Source of the DNA: Flexistipes sp.
GTDB lineage: Bacteria; Chrysiogenota; Deferribacteres; Deferribacterales; Flexistipitaceae
Direction: 5' to 3'
DNA length: 64,000 nucleotides
NCBI RefSeq assembly: GCF_036172515.1
Contig: NZ_JAXKVW010000004.1
Span: 100,010-164,009 of the forward strand
Positions 43,153 to 57,239 of the stretch are shown here, one piece after another. The number at the start of each line of letters is the position of its first letter. The first letter of the stretch is position 1. Position numbers and translations under genes: made by a program. Below the pieces are notes generated by a model. The model had not been told where the DNA came from. It worked only from the letters and a program-made list of their open reading frames with translations, and did no database searches.

Positions 43153-43159
43153 TTTATTA

Positions 43160-43947
43160 GTTGTTTGAAAACAAAATATCAAGTAAACCCCGGTGTGGAT
43201 TGCTATAACCGTGGCGGGTTATAGTGAACCAGTGGCAGGGGGAATTACGCCCAATGATTTCATTATGGAGTTGCGGGAATTAAAGCCTATATATCAGGAA
43301 TCCATAATGAAATAAAATGAGTACCGCATCCCTTCTTTTCATCTCAAATATTAAATCTCCTTTATTTAGGAGCTGTTCTGAGGATATTATCCAGAGGAGC
43401 AGAAAAATATAATAAATCAATTACAAACCAAAGATTAATATCTATAAAATCACAAATCCTTTCTATGCAAGTGTCTTGCAAAAAAATCAAAAAATAAGTG
43501 AAGAAAAAGAAAATCTAAAAGCAAAACAACAGGAGAAGTATATCCTGCCAAATCTGCTATATCAAACGACAGTTAGCATCGGCTGAAAGCCGAAAGTTTG
43601 TGTATACAATACAAGTGCGTTAGGATTGCAGGATATTTGTATGCAAAGGGTTTTGCCCATTTGGGCACATTGCACTTACTTGACTTGTGTTTAATCAGGT
43701 CATGTTAGTAGGTGTAATGAAAGACACCGGAGGAAACTTGCTATATACGATGTCGGACTTACTTCTAAAGAGAGGTAGGTTTACAGGCAATATTTGTATG
43801 GCAGGTTAAACCAAAGGTGTCGAAAAGAAGGGAACTCGTCAAAATTAAAAAACAACAAGCCCAATGGGGGCAGTTATTATTGTCCCCTTGGGGCTATAAC
43901 TGTCTCTGTTGGGTAAAATAAAAAACCTAACAAAGAAGGAGGCAGTT
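43160..43947 (+). ncRNA. ~790-nt structured noncoding leader (candidate ncRNA or oriT)
   Basis: No gene. Structure: CTATAACC/GGTTATAG (43203-43210/43217-43224) inside CCCC (43188-43191)/GGGG (43238-43242); ATTTCATTATGGA/TCCATAATGAAAT (43257-43269/43301-43313), a perfect 13-bp stem; ATATCCTGC/GCAGGATAT (43540-43548/43628-43636) enclosing an AGCATCGGCTGAAAGCCG hairpin; GCCCA/TGGGC (43664-43676 region); GACACC/GGTGTC (43723-43728/43816-43821). It ends in the first array leader. It could be a long RNA, a riboregulator or a transfer origin. Confidence 0.5.
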
Positions 43948-43949
43948 AT
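43858..43949 (+). promoter_or_regulatory. Array leader L1
   Basis: Stem 43858-43869/43884-43892; loop strand GCAGTTAT (43870-43877); middle strand ATAACTGTCTC (43896-43906); ribosome site GGAGGCAGTTAT (43938-43949). The middle strand can pair with either of the other two. Confidence 0.7.
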
Positions 43950-44232
43950 GTTCAAAACAATTTCCAAAAAAGGGAAAAAAGAAAAACAGGAAAAAGAGTA
44001 TCTTGAAGCTCTTTCCGAATTTAGGTCAAATTTTCCGGTCTCAGAAGGCTGGGAAATTAACACATTTAAGGCAAAGGACGGGTATATTACTACCAAAGTC
44101 CAGAAAAAGGGGAACGTGTATTCCCAAGCTTCAGTTGAGCGAGAAGATGAAACGCATACTGAGGCAGAAAGAAGGTCAATTGTAGAGGCTCTTATACGTT
44201 TCGGGATTATACCTGAAAAAGAGGCCGCATAA
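43948..44232 (+). CDS. Unknown 94-residue protein, first of array
   Basis: Lys-rich N-terminus then a small alpha/beta domain (GWEINTFKAKDGYITTKVQK) and acidic C-terminus. Start fixed by AAGGAGGCAGTT. Not identified. Confidence 0.65.
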   Translation: MFKTISKKGKKEKQEKEYLEALSEFRSNFPVSEGWEINTFKAKDGYITTKVQKKGNVYSQASVEREDETHTEAERRSIVEALIRFGIIPEKEAA

Positions 44233-44246
44233 AAAAACTAAAAAAA

Positions 44247-44319
44247 CCCCGACGGGGAGACAGATTACTCCCTGTTGGGGGATAACTGTCTCCTCGTCAA
44301 AACAAAAGGAGGCAGTTAT
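44247..44319 (+). promoter_or_regulatory. Array leader L2
   Basis: 11-bp stem CCCCGACGGGG/CCCTGTTGGGG (44247-44257/44270-44280); loop GAGACAG; middle ATAACTGTCTCC (44282-44293); ribosome site GGAGGCAGTTAT (44308-44319). Confidence 0.75.
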
Positions 44320-44452
44320 GAGAAACAAAAATTTAGTATTAACAACAAAAGGCAACAAGCTCTATGTGGATAACGCCACATTGAGAAGAATGCAGCGTAA
44401 AAGAACAATTGTCTGTGTATACCAATATGCAGATGATGATTTAGCTGCATAA
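44318..44452 (+). CDS. 44-residue small protein
   Basis: MRNKNLVLTTKGNKLYVDNA, basic middle (RRMQRKRT), acidic end. Supported by the array leader and its ribosome site. Confidence 0.6.
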   Translation: MRNKNLVLTTKGNKLYVDNATLRRMQRKRTIVCVYQYADDDLAA

Positions 44453-44476
44453 ACAAAACAAAAAAGATGATTAATG

Positions 44477-44553
44477 CCCCCACAGGGGAAGGTTGTTTAA
44501 ACTTCCCTTGTGAGGGAGTGAAACGCCTTCCTGCTTGTTGGGGCGGGGAGGTG
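44477..44553 (+). promoter_or_regulatory. Array leader L3 (variant)
   Basis: 14-bp stem with one mismatch (44477-44491/44502-44516). Middle strand CGCCTTCC (44524-44531) pairs with ribosome site GGGGAGGTG (44545-44553), both changed relative to the consensus yet still complementary. Confidence 0.65.
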
Positions 44554-44557
44554 TAAT

Positions 44558-44746
44558 ATGAAATATTTTCTCAAAGCGTTGTTTAGAATCACTCACTTAG
44601 CATCAAAAGACTTGATGCTTGCAGCTCTTGTTGCAATTGCCCTCGATAAAAAATTCGATGGCATAACTCTTAAGATCGCATTTTTTGCGTTCCTGTTGAC
44701 TTTTGTGATGGAGCTAATTATCTTATTAATTGATGATAAGGAGTGA
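44558..44746 (+). CDS. 62-residue two-span membrane protein
   Basis: Two hydrophobic helices (~18-35 and ~39-58), basic N-terminus, acidic end. Unknown; coupled with the next small membrane protein. Confidence 0.6.
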   Translation: MKYFLKALFRITHLASKDLMLAALVAIALDKKFDGITLKIAFFAFLLTFVMELIILLIDDKE

Positions 44747-44749
44747 ACA

Positions 44750-44866
44750 ATGCTTGAACTATTCTCACATCCATTGTTTCTTTTTCTTTTAGTGATAGCA
44801 CCATTAGGTATATTTAGTGGGGTAGCACTAATAATCATGGAAAAGAAACAAAAAAAAAGTAATTAA
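44750..44866 (+). CDS. 38-residue single-span membrane protein
   Basis: AAGGAG upstream; HPLFLFLLVIAPLGIFSGVA then a Lys-rich tail. Three nt after the previous stop. Confidence 0.55.
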   Translation: MLELFSHPLFLFLLVIAPLGIFSGVALIIMEKKQKKSN

Positions 44867-44872
44867 TTAAAA

Positions 44873-45108
44873 CCCCCATTGCAGGGGACGGTTGATCTCC
44901 TGCGAGGGGATAATTGTCTCCTGTATGGTAACTTTCAAGCCATAGGGTGAGTCCGCACCCTCGAAAGAAAACCCCTTCCAAAAATGAAACCGGTTACTTG
45001 TAACAATAATATTGTTGCGTACTGGTGAAGTATTCCCTGCTGACGGATTAGAGCAGGCCGGTGAAAACCCGGATAATGGGATTTTAAAAATTTTCAGGAG
45101 GCAGTAAT
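44873..45108 (+). promoter_or_regulatory. Array leader L4 with inserted second domain (ssb leader)
   Basis: Stem 44873-44887/44897-44909; loop GGGGACGGTT (44884-44893); middle AATTGTCTCCTG (44912-44923); ribosome site CAGGAGGCAGT (45095-45105). Between middle strand and ribosome site ~170 nt are inserted with GTAACAAT/ATTGTTGC and CCTGCT/AGCAGG hairpins, unlike the other leaders. Confidence 0.65.
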
Positions 45109-45501
45109 ATGTATCTAAACAATGTAGTTATTAGCGGAAACCTGACAAAAAATCCCGAAGTGAGAGTATTGTCAGATAGGGAAAAGCCGGTTACTGTTAC
45201 CAATTTTATTTTGGCTAACAACGAGCCGAAGAAAGACGGCAAAACAGCCTTTGTAAAGGTTACTGCTTTTGGCAGAACCGCAGAGGTAGTCGGTGAGTAC
45301 CTTGCAAAGGGACAGCCTGTAATAGTTGTTGGCTCTTTGAAGCAAAATAGTTTTGAAAATGCTGAGGGTCAGAAAGTCAATTACAGCTATATCCAGGCTG
45401 ATAACGTGCAAATGTTTCCGAAAAAAAATGGTAGTAGCCAGCAACAAGAGCCTGTTGTTGATACTGCTAATTATGTGGATGAAAACGACATCCCTTTCTA
45501 A
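45109..45501 (+). CDS. ssb: Single-stranded DNA-binding protein
   Basis: 130 residues: OB-fold (VVISGNLTKNPEVRVLSDR, FVKVTAFGRTAEVVGEYLAK) and the conserved acidic tail DENDIPF that recruits partners. Consistent with protecting entering single strands or supporting Bet-mediated annealing. Its leader is the longest of the array. Confidence 0.95.
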   Translation: MYLNNVVISGNLTKNPEVRVLSDREKPVTVTNFILANNEPKKDGKTAFVKVTAFGRTAEVVGEYLAKGQPVIVVGSLKQNSFENAEGQKVNYSYIQADNVQMFPKKNGSSQQQEPVVDTANYVDENDIPF

Positions 45502-45535
45502 AAGGGAAGTTTTTGTAAAATAATAACTCAAAATA

Positions 45536-45654
45536 TCCCCTGTCCGGGGTTGCTCAGTCAATCCCGGTGGGGGATTGGACTGTCTCCTATTAAGGAGAGT
45601 ACCCCTGTGGCGGGTGTAGCAACCGGCAGGGGGAAATAAAATAAGGAGGCAGTT
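45536..45654 (+). promoter_or_regulatory. Array leader L5 with second hairpin domain
   Basis: Stem 45536-45548/45563-45574; loop CAGTCAAT (45555-45562) pairs with ATTGGACTG at the start of the middle strand (45574-45587); GACTGTCTCC also pairs with GGAGGCAGTT (45645-45654). A second domain CCCCTG/CAGGGG (45602-45632) is shared with 43188-43242. Confidence 0.7.
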
Positions 45655-46533
45655 ATGCAAAACGTGGCAAGAATTCAAGAAAAACAAACATTGCAGAAGA
45701 AAAGCGGGTTTAGCTCACTGAGTGAAAGAGAATTGCAAGTGATTAAAAAGCAATTCTTTCCTCATGGAGCGGATAATGAAGAGATAAGCTATTGTATCAG
45801 TGTAGCAAAACAGCTTGATCTCAATCCGCTGATGAAAGAAGTAATGTTTGTACCCCGCAGGCAAAAAATTAATGGCAAATGGGTCGAAAAATATGAGCCA
45901 CTTGTCGGTCGTGACGGTTTTTTGAGTATAGCTCATAAGACCGGACAGTTTGCGGGCATAAAAACTGAATCTTTTCTAAAAGAAATCCCTGTCCTTAACA
46001 AAAACGGATGGGAATATAAAAATGAGCTTGTAGCACGGTGTACCGTGTACCGTAAAGACACAAATCAACCTTTTATAGTTGAGGTCTCGTTTAATGAGTA
46101 CGCTCAACGGACAAAAGAAGGCTTTTTGACGGCATTTTGGCGGGATAAACCTGACACTATGCTGAAAAAGGTGGCTGAATCACAGTGCTTGCGGAAAGCA
46201 TTTAATATAAACGGCATCTACGGTGCAGAGGAAATAGGTTATGGCACATATGATGCTGAGGGAATGGTGATCCGTGATCCTGAAACAGTTGTTAATGAAG
46301 GAGAGATTGAAACGGAAACACCGCCCTCGAAAGAAAATCCTATAAATGATGAGCAGGCAAAGAAGCAACTGTTAGAGTTTTTGGCAAATTTGGGCTTTAC
46401 AATAGCCCAAGGCAAAGAGAACTCCAACACATACTATGTGAAAGGTTCTCCATATGGCAAGCCAAAGGCGAAAGAGTTGCTTGAGAGATATTTCATCCAA
46501 GTAAAAGAGGATGTTTATCAATTGTCTGCTTAG
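45655..46533 (+). CDS. bet: Bet/RecT-family single-strand annealing recombinase
   Basis: 292 residues. LSERELQVIKKQFFPHGADN, LDLNPLMKEVMFVPRRQK and VGRDGFLSIAHKTGQFAGIK are the lambda Bet/RecT signature. Pairs with the exonuclease two genes on and SSB before it: a phage-type annealing module. Confidence 0.92.
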   Translation: MQNVARIQEKQTLQKKSGFSSLSERELQVIKKQFFPHGADNEEISYCISVAKQLDLNPLMKEVMFVPRRQKINGKWVEKYEPLVGRDGFLSIAHKTGQFAGIKTESFLKEIPVLNKNGWEYKNELVARCTVYRKDTNQPFIVEVSFNEYAQRTKEGFLTAFWRDKPDTMLKKVAESQCLRKAFNINGIYGAEEIGYGTYDAEGMVIRDPETVVNEGEIETETPPSKENPINDEQAKKQLLEFLANLGFTIAQGKENSNTYYVKGSPYGKPKAKELLERYFIQVKEDVYQLSA

Positions 46534-46552
46534 GAGAAAAGGAGAAAGTCAA

Positions 46553-46657
46553 ATGATGGAGAATGACATGATAGTATGGATTGCATTATATGCAATGATA
46601 GGAATAATTGTAATTGCTCTGTTTATAGGAATACATTATGAAAAAAATAAAGGATAA
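46553..46657 (+). CDS. 34-residue single-span membrane protein
   Basis: MMENDMIVWIALYAMIGIIV and a short basic tail; AAAGGAG upstream, 19 nt after bet. Confidence 0.5.
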   Translation: MMENDMIVWIALYAMIGIIVIALFIGIHYEKNKG

Positions 46658-46697
46658 AAGGAATTGATGTACTTTTTATCCTAATATAAAATAATAT

Positions 46698-46772
46698 CCC
46701 CACCGTGGGAGGCTTAGTTTCGTCTCCCACGGGGGGACGACTGCCTCCTGCGGTGGAAACTAAAGGAGGCAG
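46698..46772 (+). promoter_or_regulatory. Array leader L6
   Basis: 13-bp stem with one bulge (46698-46711/46724-46736); middle CTGCCTCCT (46741-46749) perfectly pairs with AGGAGGCAG (46764-46772). Loop TAGTTTC also pairs with GAAACTA (46756-46762). Confidence 0.75.
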
Positions 46773-46777
46773 AGAAG

Positions 46778-47743
46778 ATGCTATCAGAAATAATTGAAAA
46801 AACACTCCCAAAAATAAATAAAGAACAGTCAAATAAGGAATTAGGCGACCGTACTAAATATATCGGCTCGTCTGATGTGTCTGGTTGTCCTCGTAAGGCG
46901 GTATTGTCAAAACTTTCTCCGCCTGAGCATGACATTGAAACGCTTATAAGCTTTGAGCGTGGACATTTGGCTGAAAAGATTCTTTTAAAAATTTTTGGGA
47001 GAACAAACTATAAATACTCCACACAAGAAGAGCTGATTCATCCAGAATATCCTCATTTTAAGGCACACGTGGATTTCTTCTTTTACTCAAAAGATATGAA
47101 ATCTATAGGAATTTGCGAAGTTAAAACGACTTCCGGAATCCCTGATAAGCCTTATGAGGGCTGGGTGTCTCAACTATATTGGCAAATGGGATTGGCAAAG
47201 CTAATATACCCTGATGCCAAAATCAAGGGTGCTATATTTGCTCTTGATCTGAACACAGGAGAAAGAAAAGAGTTCAATTCATATGAACCCTTTGACCTGA
47301 TATTTGAACAGCTTGTCGAAAAGGCACAAAACATTTGGAGTGCCGTTAATGGTGATGTAAAGCCTGAGTGTGAACCTTCACTATTATGCGGGCATTGCGA
47401 ATATCAGATAGATTGTCCTGTTTATGATCGGGGCAAGCTTCCGGAAGATGTGTGGAATTTGGCTCTTTCTTATGCTGATAAAAAGGCACAGGAAAAAGAG
47501 CTGAAAAACAAATTAGACAAAATAAGAGACGACATCCTCAAATATACCGGTGATGAAAAATTATCGGCAACAAATGAGGACCTTATGCTGTCCGTCAGTG
47601 TGACGGCTCCGAGAACATCGGAATTTGTTAAGGGTGCTGATCTTAAAGAAAAGTACCCTGAGATATTTGAGGAGTGCAAGGAGACGAGAGAGTTTCCGGC
47701 ATCACTTAAAGTTTTTAAGAAAAAGAAAAGAGTAAAAAAATAA
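46778..47743 (+). CDS. Cas4/RecB-like PD-(D/E)XK exonuclease with Fe-S cysteines
   Basis: 321 residues. Nuclease motifs: FERGHLAEKILL, AHVDFFF, GICEVKTTSG (D...ExK), QLYWQMGLA. One Cys near the N-terminus (VSGCPRKAVL) and CGHCEYQIDCP later match the four-cysteine 4Fe-4S site of Cas4/AddB-type nucleases. Likely the 5'-3' resection partner of Bet. C-terminal coiled coil and Lys tail. Confidence 0.85.
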   Translation: MLSEIIEKTLPKINKEQSNKELGDRTKYIGSSDVSGCPRKAVLSKLSPPEHDIETLISFERGHLAEKILLKIFGRTNYKYSTQEELIHPEYPHFKAHVDFFFYSKDMKSIGICEVKTTSGIPDKPYEGWVSQLYWQMGLAKLIYPDAKIKGAIFALDLNTGERKEFNSYEPFDLIFEQLVEKAQNIWSAVNGDVKPECEPSLLCGHCEYQIDCPVYDRGKLPEDVWNLALSYADKKAQEKELKNKLDKIRDDILKYTGDEKLSATNEDLMLSVSVTAPRTSEFVKGADLKEKYPEIFEECKETREFPASLKVFKKKKRVKK

Positions 47744-47753
47744 ATAAAACCCA

Positions 47754-47824
47754 CCCCTAACGGGGGCAGTTGTCCCCGTTAGGGGGATAACTGTCTCCGT
47801 TACTATACTGAAGGAGGCAGTTAT
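47754..47824 (+). promoter_or_regulatory. Array leader L7 (cleanest copy)
   Basis: Perfect 12-bp stem CCCCTAACGGGG/CCCCGTTAGGGG (47754-47765/47774-47785), 8-nt loop GCAGTTGT, middle ATAACTGTCTCC (47787-47798), ribosome site GGAGGCAGTTAT (47813-47824). Confidence 0.8.
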
Positions 47825-47897
47825 GGTTGAATTAGTAAATATGACATTAATCGGAATGGCAGTTACAATAGCTGCTATTATAGGGGGTGCAATATGA
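47823..47897 (+). CDS. 24-residue hydrophobic peptide
   Basis: MVELVNMTLIGMAVTIAAII then GGAI; ATGA overlap with the next gene. May be a coupled leader peptide or tiny membrane protein. Confidence 0.5.
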   Translation: MVELVNMTLIGMAVTIAAIIGGAI

Positions 47898-48160
47898 TAG
47901 ACATTGCATCCCAAGAATTGTCAGTTAAAAAAATCGGTAAATTTCTTGATAAATGGGGTTTTAGTCTGCAAATAAGCAGAACTCCATATTCAGATCAAAG
48001 CACCTATAAAATTGTCGATAAAGACACAATGCAGGTGATATTTATCGGCAATTACAAACATTTCCTTAAAATCCTCAGCAGTTTGACAATCATCTATGAA
48101 AAGATGCTTGAGTTGGTTGTTGAGGAGGAAATCGAAAGAAGAAACAGAGGTGCTGCATGA
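47894..48160 (+). CDS. Unknown 88-residue protein
   Basis: Small alpha/beta protein with a helical acidic end (KMLELVVEEEIERRNRG). ATGA overlaps at both ends show tight coupling. Not identified. Confidence 0.6.
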   Translation: MIDIASQELSVKKIGKFLDKWGFSLQISRTPYSDQSTYKIVDKDTMQVIFIGNYKHFLKILSSLTIIYEKMLELVVEEEIERRNRGAA

Positions 48161-48318
48161 CTTATTGCCTGAAAATTGGAGAAAGATACTACTTGTTTTT
48201 AGCTTCTTCAAAGCAGGAAGCTGAAAATATAGCTTATAAAATTAATAAAATAGAAAAGGGGATAAATGTGAGCCATTTATGCTCACCACCCAAAGAAGCT
48301 TTAGATAGACTGAATTAA
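48157..48318 (+). CDS. 53-residue small protein
   Basis: MTYCLKIGERYYLFLASSKQ, basic and soluble; coupled by ATGA. Supported by position only. Confidence 0.55.
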   Translation: MTYCLKIGERYYLFLASSKQEAENIAYKINKIEKGINVSHLCSPPKEALDRLN

Positions 48319-48326
48319 TTGTGTAA

Positions 48327-48423
48327 CCCCAGCAGGGGGTACTAATCCCCTGTTGGGGATTATAGTGCCTCCTGTCCTTATTTTTAGGTGGGCAATCCTA
48401 AAAAAAATTTAAAAAACAGGAGG
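48327..48423 (+). promoter_or_regulatory. Array leader L8 (variant)
   Basis: 12-bp stem (48327-48338/48347-48358); loop GTACTAAT pairs, with a 2-nt bulge, with ATTATAGTGC; the same strand's GCCTCCTGT (48367-48375) pairs with ACAGGAGG (48416-48423). Loop and middle strand have changed together. Confidence 0.75.
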
Positions 48424-48429
48424 TAGATT

Positions 48430-48711
48430 ATGAGCACAAGAGTTCAGATTATGACAGAAAAAGGTAAAGTTTTTACTTATCCCAATATGGAGATAGCATT
48501 GTCGCTTCTCCAAAAAGTTGTGGAGAGATTTGGCAGTATAAAACAGATCACTCCTATTGAAAAATATTCTGATAACACTCCCAGGGCTTCTGTTACTAAA
48601 GTAGCTCAAAAACCTGTTGGTATGGGAGCTTGCCCGGAATGTGGCAGTCCGATTGCAATCGAAGAAGGTTGCAGAAAATGCCACAGTTGCGGTTATTCCG
48701 CTTGCGGGTAA
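48430..48711 (+). CDS. Zinc-ribbon protein
   Basis: 93 residues; N-terminal alpha/beta region and a C-terminal ribbon CPECGSPIAIEEGCRKCHSC, GYSACG, similar to zinc tails of ribonucleotide reductases and nucleic-acid proteins. Confidence 0.7.
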   Translation: MSTRVQIMTEKGKVFTYPNMEIALSLLQKVVERFGSIKQITPIEKYSDNTPRASVTKVAQKPVGMGACPECGSPIAIEEGCRKCHSCGYSACG

Positions 48712-48725
48712 AAAGGGGGTGTATC

Positions 48726-49067
48726 ATGCTAAATATCGAAAAAATAATAAAAAAGCCTGATCCGGAAATTATTGATGCTTATATAGAGCAAAATGAGATT
48801 AGGGATTACATGGTAGAAAACGGACGAGAAATAGCTCCGTTCTTTTATCAAGTTGAATGCCAGTACGGACGTTTCCAGACAGTAAAGGATTACACTGACT
48901 CAGTTGGTGTCAAGGACCCCCAATGCTGGGGATGTCCAATAAGTAGGAATCGAACACTGAAAAAGTGTTTTGGTATTCTTACTGGTAGGGATATTGAAAG
49001 ACATTATAGAGAAGGATTTCTACCACCTTTTGTGGAAGGTAGGAAAAAAATAAAATCTGTATCATAA
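48726..49067 (+). CDS. Unknown 113-residue protein with CX2C
   Basis: Start at 48726 (GGGGG upstream); a longer frame runs into the previous gene. Contains ECQYGRF and QCWGCPISRNRTLKKC, a possible metal site. Not identified. Confidence 0.6.
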   Translation: MLNIEKIIKKPDPEIIDAYIEQNEIRDYMVENGREIAPFFYQVECQYGRFQTVKDYTDSVGVKDPQCWGCPISRNRTLKKCFGILTGRDIERHYREGFLPPFVEGRKKIKSVS

Positions 49068-49077
49068 AAAAAATAAT

Positions 49078-49139
49078 CCCGAACAGGGGTACTATCCCCT
49101 GTTCGGGGGATAGGTGCCTCTGTTCTCAGCAAGGAGGCA
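49078..49139 (+). promoter_or_regulatory. Array leader L9 (variant)
   Basis: Perfect 12-bp stem CCCGAACAGGGG/CCCCTGTTCGGG (49078-49089/49096-49107); loop TACTAT with preceding GG pairs with ATAGGTGCC; TGCCTC pairs with GAGGCA (49134-49139). Confidence 0.75.
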
Positions 49140-49142
49140 AAT

Positions 49143-50219
49143 ATGAGTCGTTTAGCATCTCAAGCTAAAATGGGGCATTATCCCACGCCCCCCGAAGTTA
49201 TAGAGCAAATAAAGGAACTCTTTAGTTTCTCATCTGGTAGCAGATGTATTGATACCTGCTGTGGTCAAGGCGATGCTCTTGCCGGTTTAACTGAGCAAGC
49301 TCCTGTAGAAACATATGGCATTGAGCTTGATAAGGACAGAGCAAGACAAGCAAAAGGAAGGTTAGGCAAAGTGTTGAACTGTGATGCGATTTATGAAACA
49401 CGCATAACAAATAATGCTTTCGACCTTTTGTTTCTTAATCCGACTTATGATTGGGAAACTAAAGAGCGTGAAGAATCAGATACCGAGAGAACGGAAAAAA
49501 AATTTCTTCAGTTTCATCTGCGGTATCTGAATACCAAAGGTGTTTTAGTGTATGTAATACCTTTTGCATCGCTAAAACACACATATCGTCTATTCCTCAG
49601 ATTAAAGGACTTACGGGTTCTTGCTTTTCCTAAAGAACTGTATAAACAGTTCAAGCAGGTAGTTGTAATTGGCAAATCTTCTGCTTTTTCAGGAAAATCG
49701 GAAATAGATGCAAAGCGTGCTATGATGAAAAATATCATCAAATATGTTGAACCGGAAACGGCTTATGAGTCGCTCTGGACAACAGAAAGCATCTTACGTG
49801 CGGGTGATTATCGTCCTCTTTATGAGGTTGAAAGAAACAATGTGGAGTTGAAAAACTTCACATCAACCCGCATAGACCCTGATGAAGTCCTCCCTTTTGT
49901 TAAGTCATCCCAAGTATATGCCGAGTATGATCGCCGGATATCAGTTGATAAAGTCGAAGAAATACAGCCTTTATCAATGCTGAGAAATGGACATTTGGCA
50001 ATGTTGCTCGCATCAGGGATGATGAATGGAAGGCTAAAAAACGACAAGTATGATTTAGTCGTTAAGGGAAACATAAAGTCTTTCATGCAACAAAATGGCG
50101 AGGAAGAAGACGAATTACTTAATGGTAGTGAGAAAACAACCGTTAAGAGTACAAAAAAGTATCAGGTTCAAGTCAGAGCTTTGGACCTGAATTCTTTGCA
50201 GTTTATAAATATAGAATAG
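49143..50219 (+). CDS. Class I SAM-dependent (adenine-type) methyltransferase, DUF6094-like
   Basis: 358 residues. KMGHYPTPPEV, then the SAM loop CIDTCCGQGDALAGL, acidic YGIELDKDRA and motif IV FLNPTYDW (an NPPY-type catalytic motif). Resembles the DUF6094 proteins that accompany SNF2 helicases in mobile elements. May mark DNA against restriction after transfer (inference). Confidence 0.8.
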   Translation: MSRLASQAKMGHYPTPPEVIEQIKELFSFSSGSRCIDTCCGQGDALAGLTEQAPVETYGIELDKDRARQAKGRLGKVLNCDAIYETRITNNAFDLLFLNPTYDWETKEREESDTERTEKKFLQFHLRYLNTKGVLVYVIPFASLKHTYRLFLRLKDLRVLAFPKELYKQFKQVVVIGKSSAFSGKSEIDAKRAMMKNIIKYVEPETAYESLWTTESILRAGDYRPLYEVERNNVELKNFTSTRIDPDEVLPFVKSSQVYAEYDRRISVDKVEEIQPLSMLRNGHLAMLLASGMMNGRLKNDKYDLVVKGNIKSFMQQNGEEEDELLNGSEKTTVKSTKKYQVQVRALDLNSLQFINIE

Positions 50220-50229
50220 GGGGTGCTGA

Positions 50230-50772
50230 ATGTATAGAAAGATAGATTATATGGGGAATATCGCTTATTCGGACAGATACGTTCAAATGGGTGGTATAGT
50301 ATATATGATTTCATTATTCGGTACTCCCGATCTTGTCAAAGCGATTTCCAGTGCTTTAATTAACAAGCAGGAAATCAGGATAGAGGAAGAAAACGAAACC
50401 TTTGCTCCTATGGCAAGGTCATTAACCAATAATTATACAGTAATGCAGAAAAAGATTGCTCATGGAGTGAATCACTGCATTATCTATCTGAAAGATATTC
50501 TAAATATACAGGATATTCAGAGTGTGGCGGTTATCATAGAGCCCACACCGGACAAACTGTACGATCTTCTTGATGCAAAATATCCGACACCGTTGTTGCC
50601 GGAGTGGAAAGATGAGCTTTATGCAAAGTTTGTCACAAACTCACCTAACACAATGCAATTGCGGACTTTCGGATATGAATCGGCTGTTGAAATAGAACTG
50701 CCGAGTCAGGAAGAATTAGAGACAAAGGTTCTTGATATTGTTTCATCAGAACCTTTAGCAAAAGCATCATAA
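50230..50772 (+). CDS. Unknown 180-residue partner of methyltransferase
   Basis: No leader of its own; GGGGGTG ribosome site 10 nt after the methyltransferase. Soluble alpha/beta protein, no motif recognised. Confidence 0.65.
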   Translation: MYRKIDYMGNIAYSDRYVQMGGIVYMISLFGTPDLVKAISSALINKQEIRIEEENETFAPMARSLTNNYTVMQKKIAHGVNHCIIYLKDILNIQDIQSVAVIIEPTPDKLYDLLDAKYPTPLLPEWKDELYAKFVTNSPNTMQLRTFGYESAVEIELPSQEELETKVLDIVSSEPLAKAS

Positions 50773-50776
50773 AAAA

Positions 50777-50855
50777 CCCCAAAGCAGGGGGCGTAACGTT
50801 CCCTGCTGGGTATAATAGCGTTCGTCTCCTGCTGTATTGACAAAGGAGGCGAAGC
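50777..50855 (+). promoter_or_regulatory. Array leader L10 (key covariation copy)
   Basis: Stem 50777-50790/50801-50810. Loop GGCGTAACGTT (50790-50800) pairs with AGCGTTCGTC of the middle strand (50817-50829), which also pairs with ribosome site GGAGGCGAAGC (50845-50855). All three strands differ from consensus and remain complementary. Confidence 0.8.
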
Positions 50856-51329
50856 ATGAAAAATAACATAAAAAACATTTCTCTCACCAAGAGAGAGAAG
50901 GAGTATATTTTGCAAAACGAAAACAAAAATAAAGTAGAGGAAAGTATCGAAAGATACGAAACTATATCAGATCTCGTTGAGGGTGACGATATAGGTGAAA
51001 ATCTTTTAGGCAACCTGATTGAAAAGGCATCTGAGTATGTAAAAGTGATTTGCAGAAATGATGTTATAGGTAACACTCAGGCAAAAAGGCTTGAGGGTGA
51101 AAAGTTCAGAGAATTGATGATGGAGCTGGATAGACGAAGAACATCAGCCCATGAAGCTTTAATCTCGGCTCTTCATGCTTTAAACAGATATTGCCTAAAA
51201 GAATATGAAGGTGAATGTCCCAAAGGCGGGATATATTCACTCGATCCCTCTACTATCCGTAACAGGGTAGCGGTCGGCGATTGGGCCGGACAACTTATTT
51301 ACGGAATTTTTGTTAAAAGAAAAAAATAA
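50856..51329 (+). CDS. DUF3232-like protein
   Basis: 157 residues; ELMMELDRRRTSAHEALISA, LHALNRYCLKEY and NRVAVGDWAGQLIYG resemble the DUF3232 family of mobile-element proteins. Function unknown. Confidence 0.55.
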   Translation: MKNNIKNISLTKREKEYILQNENKNKVEESIERYETISDLVEGDDIGENLLGNLIEKASEYVKVICRNDVIGNTQAKRLEGEKFRELMMELDRRRTSAHEALISALHALNRYCLKEYEGECPKGGIYSLDPSTIRNRVAVGDWAGQLIYGIFVKRKK

Positions 51330-51347
51330 TAAATCTCATTTAAACAT

Positions 51348-51425
51348 CCCCGGACGGGGGGCGACTTGTCTCCCGTTCGGGGGATAAGTCTGTCCTTTCT
51401 TTCCGTCCGGGAAGGAGGCAGATCA
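51348..51425 (+). promoter_or_regulatory. Array leader L11
   Basis: 11-bp stem CCCCGGACGGG/CCCGTTCGGGG (51348-51358/51372-51382); loop GACTT pairs with AAGTC; TCTGTC of the same strand (51386-51394) can pair with GGCAGA (51417-51422). Confidence 0.65.
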
Positions 51426-54035
51426 ATGGATTATCTTGAAAAAAACAAAATCAACTTCTTTTTCTACAACGGTCAGCTCGACTGGTACTGGTTTCCTACT
51501 GATTATGTCAGGCAAGGTGATACACCTTTCGGATATGTTGTAGGTCAGTTCAGCGAGTTTGGTCATTTCTCACTGAATGAAATATTTTCAGTTGGAATGA
51601 CAGTCGGGGGAGTCTATAAGACTCCAAGATCACTAAAAGAAGTAGTGAATATTGTCGAAAACGGTGGCATCCTTGAAGGTGCTGCTGATATAAGTTTAGA
51701 AAAATTTAGGGAAGTTACAAAGAGTAAGAAAACTCTTCAAAACTTTTTAGACTCACTGCCCGAAGATCCAGACGATCCTAACGGTTCTGGTCCGGGCGGT
51801 GGTGAACCTGAAAAGAAAGAAGATGACAATCTTACTTTAACTGACTTCCTGAACGAGTTTGGAGACACTCTTAAAGAGAAGGCTGTGAGCAAGCTCAAGC
51901 CTGTTTATAATCCCGCTCAAATCGGTGAGTGGGAAAAACAAGAGAACTCCAAGCTCAATAAATTAATTAGAAAACCTTTTAATAGCCAGCGTCATGCAAT
52001 CCTGGCACTGGCTAAAGGGTTTTACAAAGAAAAAAAGAAATCTTTAATCCTTACAGCGGAAATGGGGACTGGCAAGACGATAATGTCAGTTTGTGTGGCA
52101 TATCTTAATCCACGCCAAAACAAGAGGACACTTGTTGTTTGTCCACCCCATTTGGCAAGAAAATGGGTTAGAGAGATTAAAGAGACAATTCCAGGGGCAA
52201 AAGTAAAAACATTGGATAAAGTATCCGATGTTGATACTGATAAGCCCCAAGGTATGGAGTTTTGGGTATTAAAAAATACTAAGGCGAAGCTCCATTATAA
52301 AGAAAAATCGCTTGTAAAGTGGGATGAAGAAACACTCAGAGCAAAGAAATGTCCTGATTGTGGAGTTCTGCTCGCAAGCGAAAATATAGAAGATGAAAAA
52401 AATAATTCTGCAACCTGCACTAACTGTGGTACACCTCTTTATCAAGCAGATAGAGAAGGTTTTCGCAGATACGGCCTTGCAGAATATATAAAAAGGCAGA
52501 AAGTCAAAGTAGATTTCCTTATCCTCGATGAAGTCCATGAGTTAAAAGGCGGTGATACCGCTGTTGGGCAGGCTATGGCAAATCTTGTTAGCTGTGCTGA
52601 CAAAACTCTTGCTATGACTGGTACACTCATGGGCGGGTATGCAAAGAACCTTTTTTATATCCTCTTTCGTATGTTTACAAAGAGATTTATTGAAAAAGGT
52701 TATGCCCATAACTCCGTAACGTCTTTTGAAAGAAATTACGGAGTAATCGAGGAAACCCGGATATATGTAAGAGAGTCCGGAAGAAATTCTTCCATAGGCA
52801 AAAAGCTGAAGTCAGTCAGAATTCACAGTAAACCGGGTATGTCACCGGCTTTACTTCCTGAGTTTATCCTCGACTCAACATATTTTATGAAGCTTTCCGA
52901 TGTTTCAGATCAGCTTCCGAAATATAATGAGGATATAATTTCAGTTCCTATGGAAAATACTCAAAAGGAAATCTACAAAGAATTTGAGAATGAGCTGACA
53001 TCTGAAGTTAAACAAGCTTTAGCGAGAGGTTCAAATAAGCTTTTGGGAGCTTTGGTAAATTCGCTGTATTCCTTGCCTGATGGGGCGAGAAGAGGTGAGA
53101 TTGTATATGATCCATATACATACAATCCGCAGACCCAAGAAGGTGAGGTCATAGCATATGCAGAACCTTATGATCAATATATGCTCCCTAAAGAGCGGAA
53201 ATTAATAGACAAAATTCTTGAGGAAAAGCAGGAGAACCGCAAGTGTGCTGTATTTTTAGAGCATACAGGTACAAGAAACTTAGTTCCTGATCTTGTTGAA
53301 AGACTTGAAGCACAAGGAATTAACGCACTTGTACTAAAAACCGGCTCACCTGCGACCGACAAGCGGGAAGCATGGATAAAGAAAAAATTGAAGGAAAATC
53401 CGGATACAGATGTTCTCATTTGTAATCCGAATCTTGTTAAAACGGGTTTGGATTTACTGGATTTTCCGACAATTATCTTCTTCCAGACGGGCTATAATAT
53501 TTATACGCTTCGTCAGGCATCCCGCAGGTCTTGGAGAATTGGACAGGATAAGCCTGTTAGAGTTTACTATATGGCTTATGCTGAGACAATGCAGGAACAG
53601 GCAATGAAGTTAATAGCATCAAAACTTGAGACTTCATTGGCTGTTGAGGGTGATCTTTCCGACCAAGGCTTATCTTCTATGTCTGAGGGTGAATCAATGG
53701 CTATTCAGATGGCCAAAGAACTGGTTGGAGATAAAAAGACAGAAGATCGCAGTCTGGGAGATGTGTTTTCTTCCTACAGGGAGAAAGACGCTGTGGCCGA
53801 TTTTGACCTTGATGAAACCTTTGAAATTGCTGATCTCACTGAGACAGCTACAGAGGTTAAAGAAATCAAGACATCAAAAGGCAGAACCCGGACAATCGAA
53901 TCTACTGTCCACAAGATCATCACAAATCTTGAACCTAAAAAGCATACTGTCGGCAAAGGCAAAAAGAAGGGCGAAGTCGAAATGGTTTCGGTTTTCGATA
54001 TGCTTGAAGCTTTAGACAGTGAAGATGCTGCATAA
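51426..54035 (+). CDS. SNF2-family DEAD/DEAH helicase
   Basis: 869 residues from the ATG at 51426 (AAGGAGGCAGATCA). N-terminal domain (~1-180), Walker A AEMGTGKTIM (~212), a four-Cys zinc insert (CPDCGVLL ... CTNCG, ~308-333), DEVH box (~367), motif III TGTLMGG, and motif VI RQASRRSWRIGQ (~700). A translocase on double-stranded DNA. Expected partner of the methyltransferase two genes upstream. Confidence 0.93.
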   Translation: MDYLEKNKINFFFYNGQLDWYWFPTDYVRQGDTPFGYVVGQFSEFGHFSLNEIFSVGMTVGGVYKTPRSLKEVVNIVENGGILEGAADISLEKFREVTKSKKTLQNFLDSLPEDPDDPNGSGPGGGEPEKKEDDNLTLTDFLNEFGDTLKEKAVSKLKPVYNPAQIGEWEKQENSKLNKLIRKPFNSQRHAILALAKGFYKEKKKSLILTAEMGTGKTIMSVCVAYLNPRQNKRTLVVCPPHLARKWVREIKETIPGAKVKTLDKVSDVDTDKPQGMEFWVLKNTKAKLHYKEKSLVKWDEETLRAKKCPDCGVLLASENIEDEKNNSATCTNCGTPLYQADREGFRRYGLAEYIKRQKVKVDFLILDEVHELKGGDTAVGQAMANLVSCADKTLAMTGTLMGGYAKNLFYILFRMFTKRFIEKGYAHNSVTSFERNYGVIEETRIYVRESGRNSSIGKKLKSVRIHSKPGMSPALLPEFILDSTYFMKLSDVSDQLPKYNEDIISVPMENTQKEIYKEFENELTSEVKQALARGSNKLLGALVNSLYSLPDGARRGEIVYDPYTYNPQTQEGEVIAYAEPYDQYMLPKERKLIDKILEEKQENRKCAVFLEHTGTRNLVPDLVERLEAQGINALVLKTGSPATDKREAWIKKKLKENPDTDVLICNPNLVKTGLDLLDFPTIIFFQTGYNIYTLRQASRRSWRIGQDKPVRVYYMAYAETMQEQAMKLIASKLETSLAVEGDLSDQGLSSMSEGESMAIQMAKELVGDKKTEDRSLGDVFSSYREKDAVADFDLDETFEIADLTETATEVKEIKTSKGRTRTIESTVHKIITNLEPKKHTVGKGKKKGEVEMVSVFDMLEALDSEDAA

Positions 54036-54039
54036 ATAA

Positions 54040-54107
54040 CCCTGCGGGGGGACATTTGTTCTCCTCGTGGGGACAAATGCCCCCCTTAAATAATATTTTA
54101 GGAGGCA
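54040..54107 (+). promoter_or_regulatory. Array leader L12 (variant)
   Basis: 11-bp stem, several G-U pairs (54040-54050/54062-54072); loop CATTTGT (54053-54059) and ACAAATG (54073-54079) are perfectly complementary; TGCC then pairs with GGCA of the ribosome site (54101-54107). Confidence 0.7.
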
Positions 54108-54110
54108 GTT

Positions 54111-54356
54111 ATGATTAAAATCTTAGAAGAAGGTATTAAGTGCCAAAATTGCAACGAAGAAATAGACATAGTTGCAAAAAGTTTCTCTGAGCAAGTAAGC
54201 TCAAAAACTTTTTTAAAGTGTGTAAAAGAAGAGGACTTTTCAGATATGCTGATTACCTCTGAAACAATTTTGGAAATATCCTGTCCTTGTATGGATACAG
54301 AGCTATCTGAAGAGGATAGTGAGTTCATTAGGGGATATTTCCCATACGAATTATAA
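54111..54356 (+). CDS. Unknown 81-residue Cys-containing protein
   Basis: IKCQNCNEEID (CX2C) and SCPCMDTELSEEDSE; acidic. Possible zinc protein. Confidence 0.6.
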   Translation: MIKILEEGIKCQNCNEEIDIVAKSFSEQVSSKTFLKCVKEEDFSDMLITSETILEISCPCMDTELSEEDSEFIRGYFPYEL

Positions 54357-54361
54357 AATAA

Positions 54362-54422
54362 CCCCACGGGGGTGGTTTACTGCCCTCGTGGTGGTGAACT
54401 GCCCTCAAATAAAGGAGGCAGT
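54362..54422 (+). promoter_or_regulatory. Array leader L13 (variant)
   Basis: Stem 54362-54372/54383-54394; loop TGGTTTAC (54373-54380) pairs with GTGAACTG (54394-54401); ACTGCC pairs with GGCAGT (54417-54422). Confidence 0.7.
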
Positions 54423-54423
54423 C

Positions 54424-55104
54424 ATGATAAGAAATACTAAATATCTTCCACAAGATGTTCTCATACTTTTTGAGGACAGAATATGCCAGCTAAAGCAGTA
54501 TAGAGAAAAATTTGGCTACTTTAAGTCGCAGTGGTACACAAGAGAAACTGCTGGCCGTGCAAATGTTTCAGCTCAAATAAGTATGCTTGAAACAAAGCTA
54601 AATATTTTAGCAACACAAGTAAAATATTTAGTAACCGACCACAAAAGATTCTCTTTAAAAAGACTTAATGAAGCCTGTAATTTTCTATATGGCATACGGT
54701 TCGTTGAGGTTTCTGAGACTATCGAGGGTATTAGGAAAAACCTCAGAGAACTCCGGGAAGATGTAGAAAAATATAAAGCTGAAAAAAAGAAAAAAGAAGA
54801 AAGAAAAAACGACTTCTTTCAGATGTTCTACTCGATAGCAAGAGTTGATGTTTTCAATCTCAGAAGATGTCAGATGAAAGCTGCGGTAAAAATTGTTCAA
54901 GAAGTCAGAATTTACAAAACTTTTGGGTATCCTCAAGTTCAAACTCCCGACTTCTCGGCGGCTGAGTGGAACATTTATAATAGGGTAATCCGTGCAGCTA
55001 AATCGATGGCAAATCGTATGCAAACTGAGCGGGTTGCTGAAAAGAGATATAGAGAAACCGACCTCCGAGAACAGTCCATTGAGGACTTCATGGAGGTTGT
55101 ATGA
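54424..55104 (+). CDS. Unknown helical protein
   Basis: 226 residues from the ATG at 54424. Long charged helices with a Lys/Glu-rich coiled coil (~100-130). Four-nt overlap with the next gene. Not identified. Confidence 0.65.
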   Translation: MIRNTKYLPQDVLILFEDRICQLKQYREKFGYFKSQWYTRETAGRANVSAQISMLETKLNILATQVKYLVTDHKRFSLKRLNEACNFLYGIRFVEVSETIEGIRKNLRELREDVEKYKAEKKKKEERKNDFFQMFYSIARVDVFNLRRCQMKAAVKIVQEVRIYKTFGYPQVQTPDFSAAEWNIYNRVIRAAKSMANRMQTERVAEKRYRETDLREQSIEDFMEVV

Positions 55105-55430
55105 TGAAAAAAGTTGAATACATTTGTGAATACACAACAGACTCTGGAGATCGCATGATGAAAAAAGTTGAGTACATTTGTGAAAACACAATAGACTCTA
55201 TCAGCCATAAGATTGACTATATGATTATTAGAAACTTCAACGCAAAAACAAGAGTTAAAGGGATACTTGTAGTCAATGTACTGATAGACCAATTAAGAGA
55301 AGTTATAAAAGAAGAAACCTCAAAAAAGACTTATAAACAAAATGAGGTTAACAAGCTTAAAAGAAAAATAAGCCAACTTGAAGCAGAAGGGTATGATAAC
55401 TTAAACTACTTCTGCGAAAAAGGTTGGTAA
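55101..55430 (+). CDS. Unknown protein with duplicated N-terminus
   Basis: 109 residues. The first 18 codons (starting MMKKVEYICEYT) are repeated in tandem at codons 19-36 (MMKKVEYICENT), giving two alternative starts, each ATGATG. The rest is basic and helical. Confidence 0.6.
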   Translation: MMKKVEYICEYTTDSGDRMMKKVEYICENTIDSISHKIDYMIIRNFNAKTRVKGILVVNVLIDQLREVIKEETSKKTYKQNEVNKLKRKISQLEAEGYDNLNYFCEKGW

Positions 55431-55438
55431 AAAACAAA

Positions 55439-55508
55439 CCCCGGACGGGGACATTGTTCTCCGTTTGGGGGATAATTGTCTCCGTCTATAATAAAAAATA
55501 GGAGGCAG
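55439..55508 (+). promoter_or_regulatory. Array leader L14
   Basis: 10-bp stem CCCCGGACGG/CCGTTTGGGG (55439-55448/55461-55470); loop GGGGACA pairs with TGTCTCC of middle strand ATAATTGTCTCC (55472-55483), which also pairs with GGAGGCAG (55501-55508). Confidence 0.75.
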
Positions 55509-55510
55509 AT

Positions 55511-55720
55511 ATGGCATATTTTGAAGAGAATATCCAAATCCCGGTTAATTCAGATTGCTTTGAGTCCTATGTAGGCCGTCCGCCGAAATCAGAAGATGAG
55601 TTTTACGATTTTGTTCGTCTTGTAGAAAAAGGCTTAGACGGACAAGTTGATTACGAAATTCTTTACAAGTGTACGGCCGAAAACTTTTCATCGGAACTTG
55701 ATGAAGATGAGGAGGATTAG
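55511..55720 (+). CDS. Acidic 69-residue protein
   Basis: Very acidic, ending SSELDEDEED; a DNA-mimic-like charge, unknown role. Followed at once by the next start. Confidence 0.6.
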   Translation: MAYFEENIQIPVNSDCFESYVGRPPKSEDEFYDFVRLVEKGLDGQVDYEILYKCTAENFSSELDEDEED

Positions 55721-55966
55721 ATGGGGCTCGGTAGGGATGCAAGAGATGCACAAGCAATTTACTGGGAATTTGGTGAAGAAGGTTCTCAATATCAGCCATC
55801 CGGTCGAAAAGAAAGAAATGACGCAGAGCATACGACCAAAGAAGGCGAAGTTATAAAAGTCAAGGACATGGAAGATAGTCATTTGTACTATTCCTACCTT
55901 TGCCTTGGCGACAATAAATACCTCAAAGAGATGGTTCTCCGTCTCTTTGAAGAACGATTAATATAA
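55721..55966 (+). CDS. Unknown 81-residue protein
   Basis: ATG directly after the upstream stop (TAGATG); GATGAGGAGG upstream. Soluble, mixed charge; not identified. Confidence 0.6.
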   Translation: MGLGRDARDAQAIYWEFGEEGSQYQPSGRKERNDAEHTTKEGEVIKVKDMEDSHLYYSYLCLGDNKYLKEMVLRLFEERLI

Positions 55967-55970
55967 AAAA

Positions 55971-56040
55971 CCCCACCTACCGGGGGCAGTTATTCCCCCG
56001 GTGAGGGGAACTGCCTCTGGTGTTGAAGAAACAGGAGGCA
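55971..56040 (+). promoter_or_regulatory. Array leader L15
   Basis: Stem 55971-55986/55995-56008 with an internal loop; loop GCAGTT (55986-55991) pairs with AACTGC; AACTGCCTC (56009-56017) also faces GAGGCA (56035-56040). Confidence 0.7.
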
Positions 56041-56043
56041 AAA

Positions 56044-57216: not shown

Positions 57217-57239
57217 TGCTTATATCAATAAATAACTTT

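What the first reader, a model, noticed from the sequence alone, without database searches (positions are those of the whole stretch)
43858..56043. Fifteen repeated leaders with a mutually exclusive loop / anti-SD / ribosome-site pairing
Between almost every cistron group of one 14-kb transcript sits the same architecture: a C-rich/G-rich hairpin of 9-14 bp starting soon after the upstream stop; a loop strand (a); a downstream strand (b), typically ATAACTGTCTCC; and the ribosome site (c), typically GGAGGCAGTTAT, ending at or overlapping the AUG. Strand b is complementary both to a (a pseudoknot with the hairpin loop) and to c (occluding the ribosome site). a:b and b:c exclude each other, which is a translational switch. 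Copies are upstream of genes at 43948, 44318, 44558, 45109, 45655, 46778, 47823, 48430, 49143, 50856, 51426, 54111, 54424, 55511 and 56044; genes without one are coupled by overlaps or short spacing. I know of no described riboregulator repeated in this way in one operon.
Basis: seen in the sequence. Interest (0 to 1): 0.95.

Follow-up and report, generated by a model that had tools for sequence, protein, structure and literature searches.

The report
Repeated strand-swap switch on ribosome sites
In what looks like a conjugative mobile element of a Deferribacterota bacterium, fifteen leaders in one gene cluster are each predicted to fold in two mutually exclusive ways, one burying and one freeing the ribosome site, so each is likely a small RNA switch on translation; related mobile elements in a second phylum, Campylobacterota, carry leaders of the same predicted design in different letters.

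Summary
The a:b "pseudoknot" is part of something larger: the hairpin's 5' arm plus loop (s1+a) is complementary to b plus a further strand d, so b+d can strip s1 from its partner and build one long hairpin that leaves the ribosome site free. This helix is copy-specific (z -12.3, 0 of 10,000 permutations, 26 leaders), and RNAalifold picks it unprompted as consensus. Before the ribosome site is made the long hairpin is favoured in 24 of 26 leaders; afterwards a site-burying fold is favoured in 26 of 26. Swapping downstream halves mostly abolishes the switch: 22 of 26 own, 50 of 300 swapped. The design recurs, with other letters, in further Deferribacterota elements and in Campylobacter/Helicobacter elements sharing recombination genes; two related plasmids lack it. 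No Rfam family matches. What throws the switch is inferred: I favour a ligand-free decision during transcription; coupling to the upstream ribosome is the main rival. A new variant of a known kind (metastable translational switches), novel in being repeated through an operon.

The parts
43858..43950 (+). leader w1 (hairpin H1 to start codon), gene at 43948
   Evidence: R1 38.1 bits, not in R1's training set; s1a:bd 19 bp
44247..44320 (+). leader w2, gene at 44318
   Evidence: s1a:bd 16 bp; in R1's training set
44476..44560 (+). leader w3, gene at 44558; most divergent ribosome site
   Evidence: s1a:bd 21 bp; not listed by R1 at E<=1
44874..45111 (+). leader w4 before the SSB gene (45109), with an extra insert of about 170 nt between b and c
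   Evidence: R1 33.4 bits over 44875-44944, not in training set; spacer 173 nt; SSB Pfam
45535..45657 (+). leader w5 before the RecT/Bet gene (45655), with an extra hairpin insert before c
   Evidence: only its 3' part matched R1 (45601-45657, 24.6 bits); does not favour the long hairpin before c
46697..46780 (+). leader w6 before the nuclease-like gene (46778)
   Evidence: s1a:bd 18 bp; in R1's training set
   Evidence: in R1's training set
47754..47785 (+). w7 hairpin H1: s1 47754-47767, loop a 47768-47771, s1' 47772-47785
47758..47802 (+). w7 long hairpin LH (ribosome-site-free state): 20 bp, s1 top + a + start of s1' paired with end of s1' + b + d
   Evidence: best fold with the ribosome site barred
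47787..47798 (+). w7 strand b (ATAACTGTCTCC), shared by both states; d follows it
47813..47824 (+). w7 strand c, ribosome site GGAGGCAGTTAT
   Evidence: 12-bp b:c helix
48327..48432 (+). leader w8, gene at 48430
   Evidence: R1 35.1 bits, not in training set
49077..49145 (+). leader w9 before the DUF6094 methyltransferase gene (49143)
   Evidence: in R1's training set
50776..50858 (+). leader w10, gene at 50856 (DUF3232)
   Evidence: R1 26.4 bits, not in training set
51348..51428 (+). leader w11 before the SNF2-type helicase gene (51426)
   Evidence: R1 33.1 bits, not in training set
54040..54113 (+). leader w12, gene at 54111; its lowest-energy fold keeps the long hairpin and buries the site another way
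   Evidence: in R1's training set
54360..54426 (+). leader w13, gene at 54424
   Evidence: in R1's training set
55439..55513 (+). leader w14, gene at 55511
   Evidence: in R1's training set
55971..56046 (+). leader w15, gene at 56044 (DpnD/PcfM-like), followed by the ArdC gene
   Evidence: in R1's training set
43124..43152 (+). promoter-like site TTGAAA-17-TATAAT, the best match in the region and a candidate start of the transcript
   Evidence: 36 promoter-like sites found, 36.2 expected by shuffling, so weak evidence
57228..57390 (+). possible sixteenth, differently built leader: one very stable hairpin burying the ribosome site of the small gene at 57388, with CTGCCTCC in or at its loop; a similar one in the relative
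   Evidence: -76.5 kcal/mol here, -85.3 in L012 712-873

Best explanation
Each leader is likely a ligand-free RNA switch on translation in which the hairpin strand s1+a and the ribosome site c compete for one downstream strand, b+d. When b+d pairs with s1+a, a long hairpin forms (s1' folds on itself inside it) and c would be free: ON. When s1 keeps its first partner s1', b pairs with c and the ribosome site would be buried: OFF. Shown by sequence and folding: the two sets of pairings, their mutual exclusion, their copy-specific fit, and that the long hairpin is favoured before c exists (24 of 26) while a site-burying fold is favoured once c is there (26 of 26). Inferred: that the choice is made while the leader is being transcribed. 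Loop a would act as the toehold for strand exchange (median 4 nt), and the long hairpin leaves c no toehold (median 0 free b letters), so a leader that reached the long hairpin before c was made would stay translatable, while one that missed it, or refolded later, would be silent. Freshly made mRNA would then be read in a burst, which would suit an operon of SSB, recombinase, methyltransferase and anti-restriction genes entering a new cell. Polymerase pace, or a ribosome ending at the stop codon upstream, could bias the choice.
For: Copy-specific fit, 26 leaders: s1:s1' z -13.0, s1a:bd z -12.3, b:c z -4.5, loop a:b z -4.8, each 0 of 10,000 permutations; d against the 5' part of s1 alone z -7.8, 0 of 20,000. 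RNAalifold consensus of 16 compact copies is the long hairpin; 91.9% of cells paired and 22 double-change cells against 8.5 in shuffles, 0 of 500. Fold: predicted probability of a wholly free ribosome site at most 0.002 at 37 C in 26 leaders, the site-free fold being 2.7-17.3 kcal/mol weaker; before c the long hairpin is favoured in 24 of 26. Swap control: both halves of the switch in 22 of 26 own pairs, 50 of 300 swapped. Toeholds: a median 4, c median 0, 24 leaders. Recurrence with other letters; none called in two related plasmids with few long gaps (0 of 38, 0 of 56). Loops and b/d letters differ between copies and lineages, and among the pieces held no small gene is shared by all the elements, which speaks against a specific ligand or regulator.
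Against: Nothing was measured; all states are predicted. Barriers by findpath, which allows no pseudoknot, are 13-27 kcal/mol from H1 to the long hairpin in the 24 leaders that favour it, so without the toehold route H1 would be a trap and leaders would go straight to OFF. The two RecT leaders (w5, d4) do not favour the long hairpin before c, and in w1, w5, w8 and d2 the best site-free fold of the whole leader is not the long hairpin. In w12 the lowest-energy fold keeps the long hairpin and buries the site otherwise; at least 5 of the first 6 ribosome-site letters are paired in 24 of 26. b:c does not covary inside A3. Copy-specificity of s1a:bd is not significant in G034 (6 copies, 789 of 10,000) or in the C. 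upsaliensis plasmid (8 copies, 5722 of 20,000, one mis-segmented), though the latter beats shuffles (0 of 1000). The Campylobacterota, G034 and G027 copies were picked by scans that asked for complementarity, so those z-scores are inflated. Upstream-ribosome coupling fits 9 of 14 spacings and is not excluded.
Confidence: 0.5

Rival explanations
1. Ribosome-coupled switch: a ribosome finishing the upstream gene would cover the C-run at the foot of H1, which the long hairpin does not need, so the long hairpin forms and the next gene opens. Each leader would make translation of a gene depend on translation of the one before it.
For: H1 starts 3-10 nt after the upstream stop in 9 of 14 window leaders that have one (w4, w7-w10, w12-w15); the H1 base pairs not used by the long hairpin are the 5' ones, median 4 in 24 leaders.
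Against: The other 5 of 14 lie 14-39 nt away. w1 and its relative d1 have no + strand ORF of 20 aa or more ending in the last 48 and 78 nt before H1.
Confidence: 0.22
2. Trans-acting control: an element-encoded protein (SSB, RecT and the nuclease are the most widely shared) or a small RNA binds H1 or loop a and holds the leaders in one state together, as a translational regulon.
For: Many copies in one operon look like a regulon; SSB, Bet, nuclease and helicase recur in most of the element pieces compared; ssDNA-binding proteins of phages are known translational repressors (recalled).
Against: Loop and b/d letters differ between copies in one operon and between lineages, leaving little beyond a C-run/G-run hairpin in common; the first gene's protein had only 3 database hits, itself included. 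The pieces compared are limited stretches around one gene, so a shared regulator further off would be missed.
Confidence: 0.15
3. One reading: an H-type pseudoknot of loop a with b on an intact hairpin H1 is the ON state.
For: Loop a:b fit is copy-specific (z -4.8, 26 leaders); it may be the transient first contact of strand exchange.
Against: Pairing continues into s1 through d, copy-specifically, which an intact H1 forbids; b follows s1' with few or no spare letters, too short to cross a stem of 12 or more pairs (geometry recalled, not modelled).
Confidence: 0.06
4. Not a switch: H1 and the long hairpin are intercistronic stabilisers, transcription terminators, or single-strand DNA features of an incoming conjugative strand, and b is just a weak ribosome-site mask.
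For: A-rich linker plus H1 reads as a terminator on the minus strand at 8 of 15 leaders; in the C. coli copies the long hairpin is followed by T-runs.
Against: On the + strand only one terminator-like hit overlaps a window leader (51363-51390); copies sit between a stop codon and a start codon, the first copies excepted, and b fits the ribosome site; G-U pairs are frequent (57 of 367 in s1a:bd, 25 of 246 in b:c), which favours RNA over DNA.
Confidence: 0.07

Closest known systems
Phage MS2 maturation-gene leader (kinetic translation window)
   Same: Translation is allowed by a transient structure before a slower, stable fold forms; as summarised in PMC6733600, section 14 (read).
   Different: One copy in an RNA phage; here 15 copies in one DNA-borne operon, with an explicit competitor strand d and a hairpin whose 3' arm refolds on itself.
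Helicobacter pylori aapA3 and E. coli hok toxin mRNAs (metastable hairpins)
   Same: Successive mutually exclusive RNA folds time access to the ribosome site during transcription (PMC6733600, abstract and section 14 read).
   Different: There the transient folds keep a toxin gene off and 3' processing plus an antisense RNA matter; here the transient fold is predicted to be ON, the genes are recombination and establishment genes, and the design is repeated.
Translational riboswitches and attenuators
   Same: Anti-ribosome-site strand shared between two exclusive helices (recalled).
   Different: No conserved ligand-binding core was seen: base-pairing is conserved while most letters vary; no Rfam match to a leader.
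Synthetic toehold riboregulators
   Same: Strand displacement from a short toehold would open a ribosome site (recalled; related papers seen only as a search listing).
   Different: Natural, in cis, no separate trigger RNA found.

Membership tests
Bistable ribosome-site-sequestering RNA switch (general kind) | Two mutually exclusive helices sharing the anti-ribosome-site strand | tested here: met
   Shared b letters median 10 in 24 leaders (0 in w12)
Bistable ribosome-site-sequestering RNA switch (general kind) | Both helices selected (copy-specific fit or covariation) | tested here: met
   s1a:bd strongly; b:c by permutation but not by covariation in A3
Bistable ribosome-site-sequestering RNA switch (general kind) | Measured change of translation | not testable with these tools
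Kinetic (nascent-ON) switch of the MS2 kind | Translatable fold favoured before the full leader exists, silent fold at equilibrium | tested here: met
   24 of 26 and 26 of 26 by predicted energy; both in 22 of 26 under other thresholds
Kinetic (nascent-ON) switch of the MS2 kind | Slow enough refolding for a useful ON time | tested here: inconclusive
   Findpath barriers ON to OFF 0.1-33.3 kcal/mol, no pseudoknots allowed
Metabolite riboswitch | Conserved aptamer core or known family | tested here: not met
   No Rfam match to a leader at gathering thresholds (one tRNA elsewhere in L016); mostly the C-run, G-run, parts of b and the ribosome site keep their letters within Deferribacterota
RNA thermometer | Ribosome site opens at growth-range heat | tested here: not met
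   Predicted probability of a wholly free site at most 0.015 at 50 C in 26 leaders; higher temperatures not tested
Intrinsic terminator/attenuator | Hairpin followed by a T-run on the coding strand | tested here: not met
   One + strand hit overlapping a window leader; differs in C. coli copies, where T-runs follow

The most novel reading that the evidence does not exclude
A class of ligand-free, self-deciding RNA switches repeated through the establishment operon of a family of conjugative elements in two phyla: each gene's ribosome site is won or lost by strand exchange during transcription, so the operon is read in a pulse from fresh RNA when the element arrives in a new cell and falls silent without any regulator protein.
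Probability: 0.3. Interest if true: 0.92.

Novelty: new variant of a known kind. Interest (0 to 1): 0.82.

Why it matters
If true, a mobile element times its own translation gene by gene with RNA alone, which would be a new answer to how conjugative elements get a brief burst of establishment proteins without a dedicated regulator. It also gives many natural, sequence-diverse copies of one strand-exchange device in single operons, a rare natural experiment for testing co-transcriptional folding, and ready-made parts for synthetic biology. Relatives in Campylobacter and Helicobacter make it relevant to how such elements spread, and related plasmids that keep similar genes but in which no leader was called (C. 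iguaniorum, Nitrosophilus) offer a comparison.

Tried and rejected
Led nowhere: DNA similarity of 43800-51000 to plasmids (no match); Rfam; phage records with the nuclease (none). In the 20 mostly Geobacter-like loci (L013-L015, L017-L021, L023, L025-L032, L036, L038, L040) the detector called 15 leaders against 7.6 expected from shuffles, scattered and without the C-run hairpin on inspection; in the 8 viral loci 2 against 1.2. The MAFFT alignment of the Campylobacterota copies (A4) misaligns the b region, and RNAalifold there returns only H1, so it neither supports nor refutes the long hairpin. A first alignment with imprecise coordinates (A2) was dropped for A3.

Considered and rejected: integron-like attC cassettes (orthologous genes keep leaders in the same order in G010; attC core motifs recalled, not searched); RNA thermometer; metabolite riboswitch; terminators on the coding strand; a regulator encoded by the first gene (among the pieces compared found only in the window and G010).

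Limits: of 50 genomes of the phylum, 24 had some R1 match at E<=0.1, mostly single weak ones that I treat as chance; I count only clusters (G000, G010, G034, G036, G027). Outside the operon the own genome's best match was E 0.074, not convincing. In one search, choosing leaders by hairpin strength alone, 11 of 53 had both s1a:bd and b:c at p<0.05; in several of the rest the hairpin finder had picked the long hairpin itself, which voids the test. In one search one G027 copy (7215) was segmented on its long hairpin.


Full report
WHAT WAS CHECKED. I read 42500-64000 of the window and printed the fifteen leaders. Exact ATAACTGTCTCC occurs in two window leaders; the ribosome site is exactly GGAGGCAGTTAT in 5 of 15.

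CONTEXT. Pfam matches place the window in an element with F-type conjugation genes (coupling protein, TraG, TraH, TraN, TraC, TrbI), a ParB-type and an actin-like segregation protein. The operon encodes SSB, RecT, a DUF6094 methyltransferase, a DUF3232 protein, an SNF2-type helicase, a DpnD/PcfM-like protein and ArdC. The gene at 46778 had no Pfam match, but a relative by BLAST matches proteins annotated as PD-(D/E)XK nucleases. The start of the abstract of PMC7213743, seen in a listing only, says ArdC of plasmid R388 is needed in recipient cells, which fits a role on arrival. The nearest named relatives of the Bet and first-gene proteins are Deferribacter and Flexistipes, so the host is likely Deferribacterota.

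THE MISSED HELIX. s1 plus a is complementary to b plus d over 11-21 bp in 24 of 26 leaders (the other two, w5 and d4, do not choose it), for example 18 contiguous pairs in w1, 4 of them G-U. s1' can close on itself, so the whole makes one long hairpin. s1' and d often carry the same or nearly the same letters, since both fit s1. RNAalifold, given 16 compact copies from two genomes, chose this long hairpin as consensus, with 5-6 double changes at each of the three outermost pairs, those with d. Counting gave 91.9% of cells paired and 22 double-change cells against 8.5 by shuffling (0 of 500) and 2-8 on sliding the partner; the number of pairs with a double change, 6, was reached by 85 of 500 shuffles.

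COPY-SPECIFIC FIT. The relative G010 (its contig length equals that of the Deferribacter autotrophicus contig behind P0006, so it is probably that species) has eleven such leaders, several before orthologous genes. I compared each leader's own partner strand with those of other leaders, 10,000 permutations. Window, 15 leaders: s1:s1' z -8.7 (0 permutations as good), s1a:bd z -7.8 (0), b:c z -3.5 (8), loop a:b z -3.7 (2). G010, 11 leaders: z -6.4 (0), -6.4 (0), -2.4 (130), -1.9 (394). All 26: -13.0, -12.3, -4.5, -4.8, all 0. The d strand alone against the 5' part of s1: z -7.8, 0 of 20,000. G010 leaders came from a pattern of hairpin plus ribosome site (nine) and two by eye.

ENERGETICS. In all 26 leaders the predicted chance of a wholly free ribosome site is at most 0.002 at 37 C; the best fold with that site barred is, in most, the long hairpin (not in w1, w5, w8, d2). 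In w12 the lowest-energy fold keeps the long hairpin and buries the site otherwise. With the RNA cut just before c, the long hairpin is favoured in 24 of 26 (not in w5 and d4, both before RecT); with c present a site-burying fold is favoured in 26 of 26, by 2.7-17.3 kcal/mol. With downstream halves exchanged between leaders, both properties held in 50 of 300 combinations against 22 of 26 own ones, while the site was buried in 288 of 300 and 24 of 26 (thresholds differ). So burial is generic, but the competing long hairpin is tuned leader by leader. Loop a offers 2-7 letters (median 4) as first contact for the long hairpin; once that is formed, c finds a median of 0 free b letters (0-5; 24 leaders). 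Direct refolding barriers are high but leave out the toehold route.

RECURRENCE WITH OTHER LETTERS. A covariance model from 16 copies, eight of them from the window, which match by construction (R1), gave weak, clustered matches in two more element groups of the phylum (G034/G036, G027) and five in a Campylobacter coli locus (E 0.05-0.3). On inspection these have the same order of strands with different letters. A letter-blind detector (hairpin; b pairs with the ribosome site; b re-pairs into the hairpin's 5' arm or loop when that site is barred) called 46 of 1429 leaders over 43 sources, against 57 of 7145 dinucleotide shuffles, 11.4 per set; 16 of the 46 are the window and G010, and part of the remaining 30 must be chance. 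A looser scan and inspection gave 32 further copies: 21 in Campylobacter and Helicobacter loci, 6 in G034, 5 in G027. Of these, 28 distinct ones gave s1a:bd z -10.6, but they were picked partly for complementarity, and G034 alone is not significant. Examples: Helicobacter pullorum L033, 17 contiguous pairs between s1a and bd; Campylobacter sp. L016, 12.

LESS BIASED TESTS. In 22 of 23 nuclease loci where a start could be set (not L116), 6 leaders were called (L102, L105, L107, L108, L110, L114); the 22 include one locus cut by a contig end (L104) and several uncalled ones that look alike by eye. In the annotated Campylobacter upsaliensis plasmid NZ_OU701460.1, 5 of 10 gaps of at least 60 nt were called, and 8 after ssb look alike by eye. 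Permutation there is not significant for s1a:bd (5722 of 20,000, one copy mis-segmented) but is for s1:s1' (3) and b:c (17), and shuffles of the downstream strand never reach s1a:bd (0 of 1000). Two related plasmids keep similar genes but have few long gaps (C. iguaniorum 4 of 28, Nitrosophilus 2 of 18, against 8 of 17), and the detector called 0 of 56 and 0 of 38 leaders in them against 4 of 25 in C. upsaliensis, one of those four (9978) not among the leaders seen by eye.

SHARED GENES. Across the leader-bearing pieces the widest-shared proteins are Bet, the nuclease, SSB and the helicase; no small protein is common to all. All four Deferribacterota genomes with DUF6094 above its cut-off (of 50) carry leader clusters.

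MECHANISM. Shown: pairings, exclusion, copy-specific fit, energy order. Inferred: that the choice falls during transcription and that the long-hairpin state is translated. I prefer a ligand-free decision because base-pairing is conserved where letters are not. Upstream-ribosome coupling is the main rival: 9 of 14 spacings are 3-10 nt, 5 are 14-39, and w1 and d1 have no ORF of 20 aa ending just upstream.

KNOWN KINDS. The nearest are metastable translational switches: MS2 maturation leader, hok, aapA3 (PMC6733600: abstract and section 14 read). The listings of ten searches of open-access papers showed no repeated device of this kind (only PMC6733600 was opened). Hence a new variant of a known kind.

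Noticed in passing
57228-57390; L012 712-873: One very stable hairpin (-76.5 and -85.3 kcal/mol) buries the ribosome site of a small gene and shows CTGCCTCC, complementary to the leaders' ribosome sites, in or at its loop.
   Followed up: partly
43155-43860; L011 8868-9345: Long 5' region before the first leader with a hairpin that seems shared between the two elements (loops GTGGC / GTTGGGCA) and large further hairpins; function unknown.
   Followed up: partly
w4, w5, w8; L011 d4, d8: Extra inserts between d and c; those before RecT carry a CCYGTGGCGGG-type hairpin in both elements, and those of w8/d8 share GGTGGGCAATCC / GGGTGGGTAACC.
   Followed up: no
minus strand at 44889, 46710, 47785, 49107, 50792, 54373, 55452, 55987: The A-rich linker plus H1 reads as an intrinsic terminator on the opposite strand at 8 of 15 leaders, perhaps blocking antisense transcription.
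   Followed up: partly
60518-61576: Transposase-like reading frame (label from inspection only, no family search); the ATG ORF ends at 61189 and similar-looking coding sequence seems to follow.
   Followed up: no
L118, L119 (Nitrosophilus and Campylobacter iguaniorum plasmids): Similar gene set without called leaders (0 of 38 and 0 of 56): genes packed tightly, a natural comparison.
   Followed up: partly
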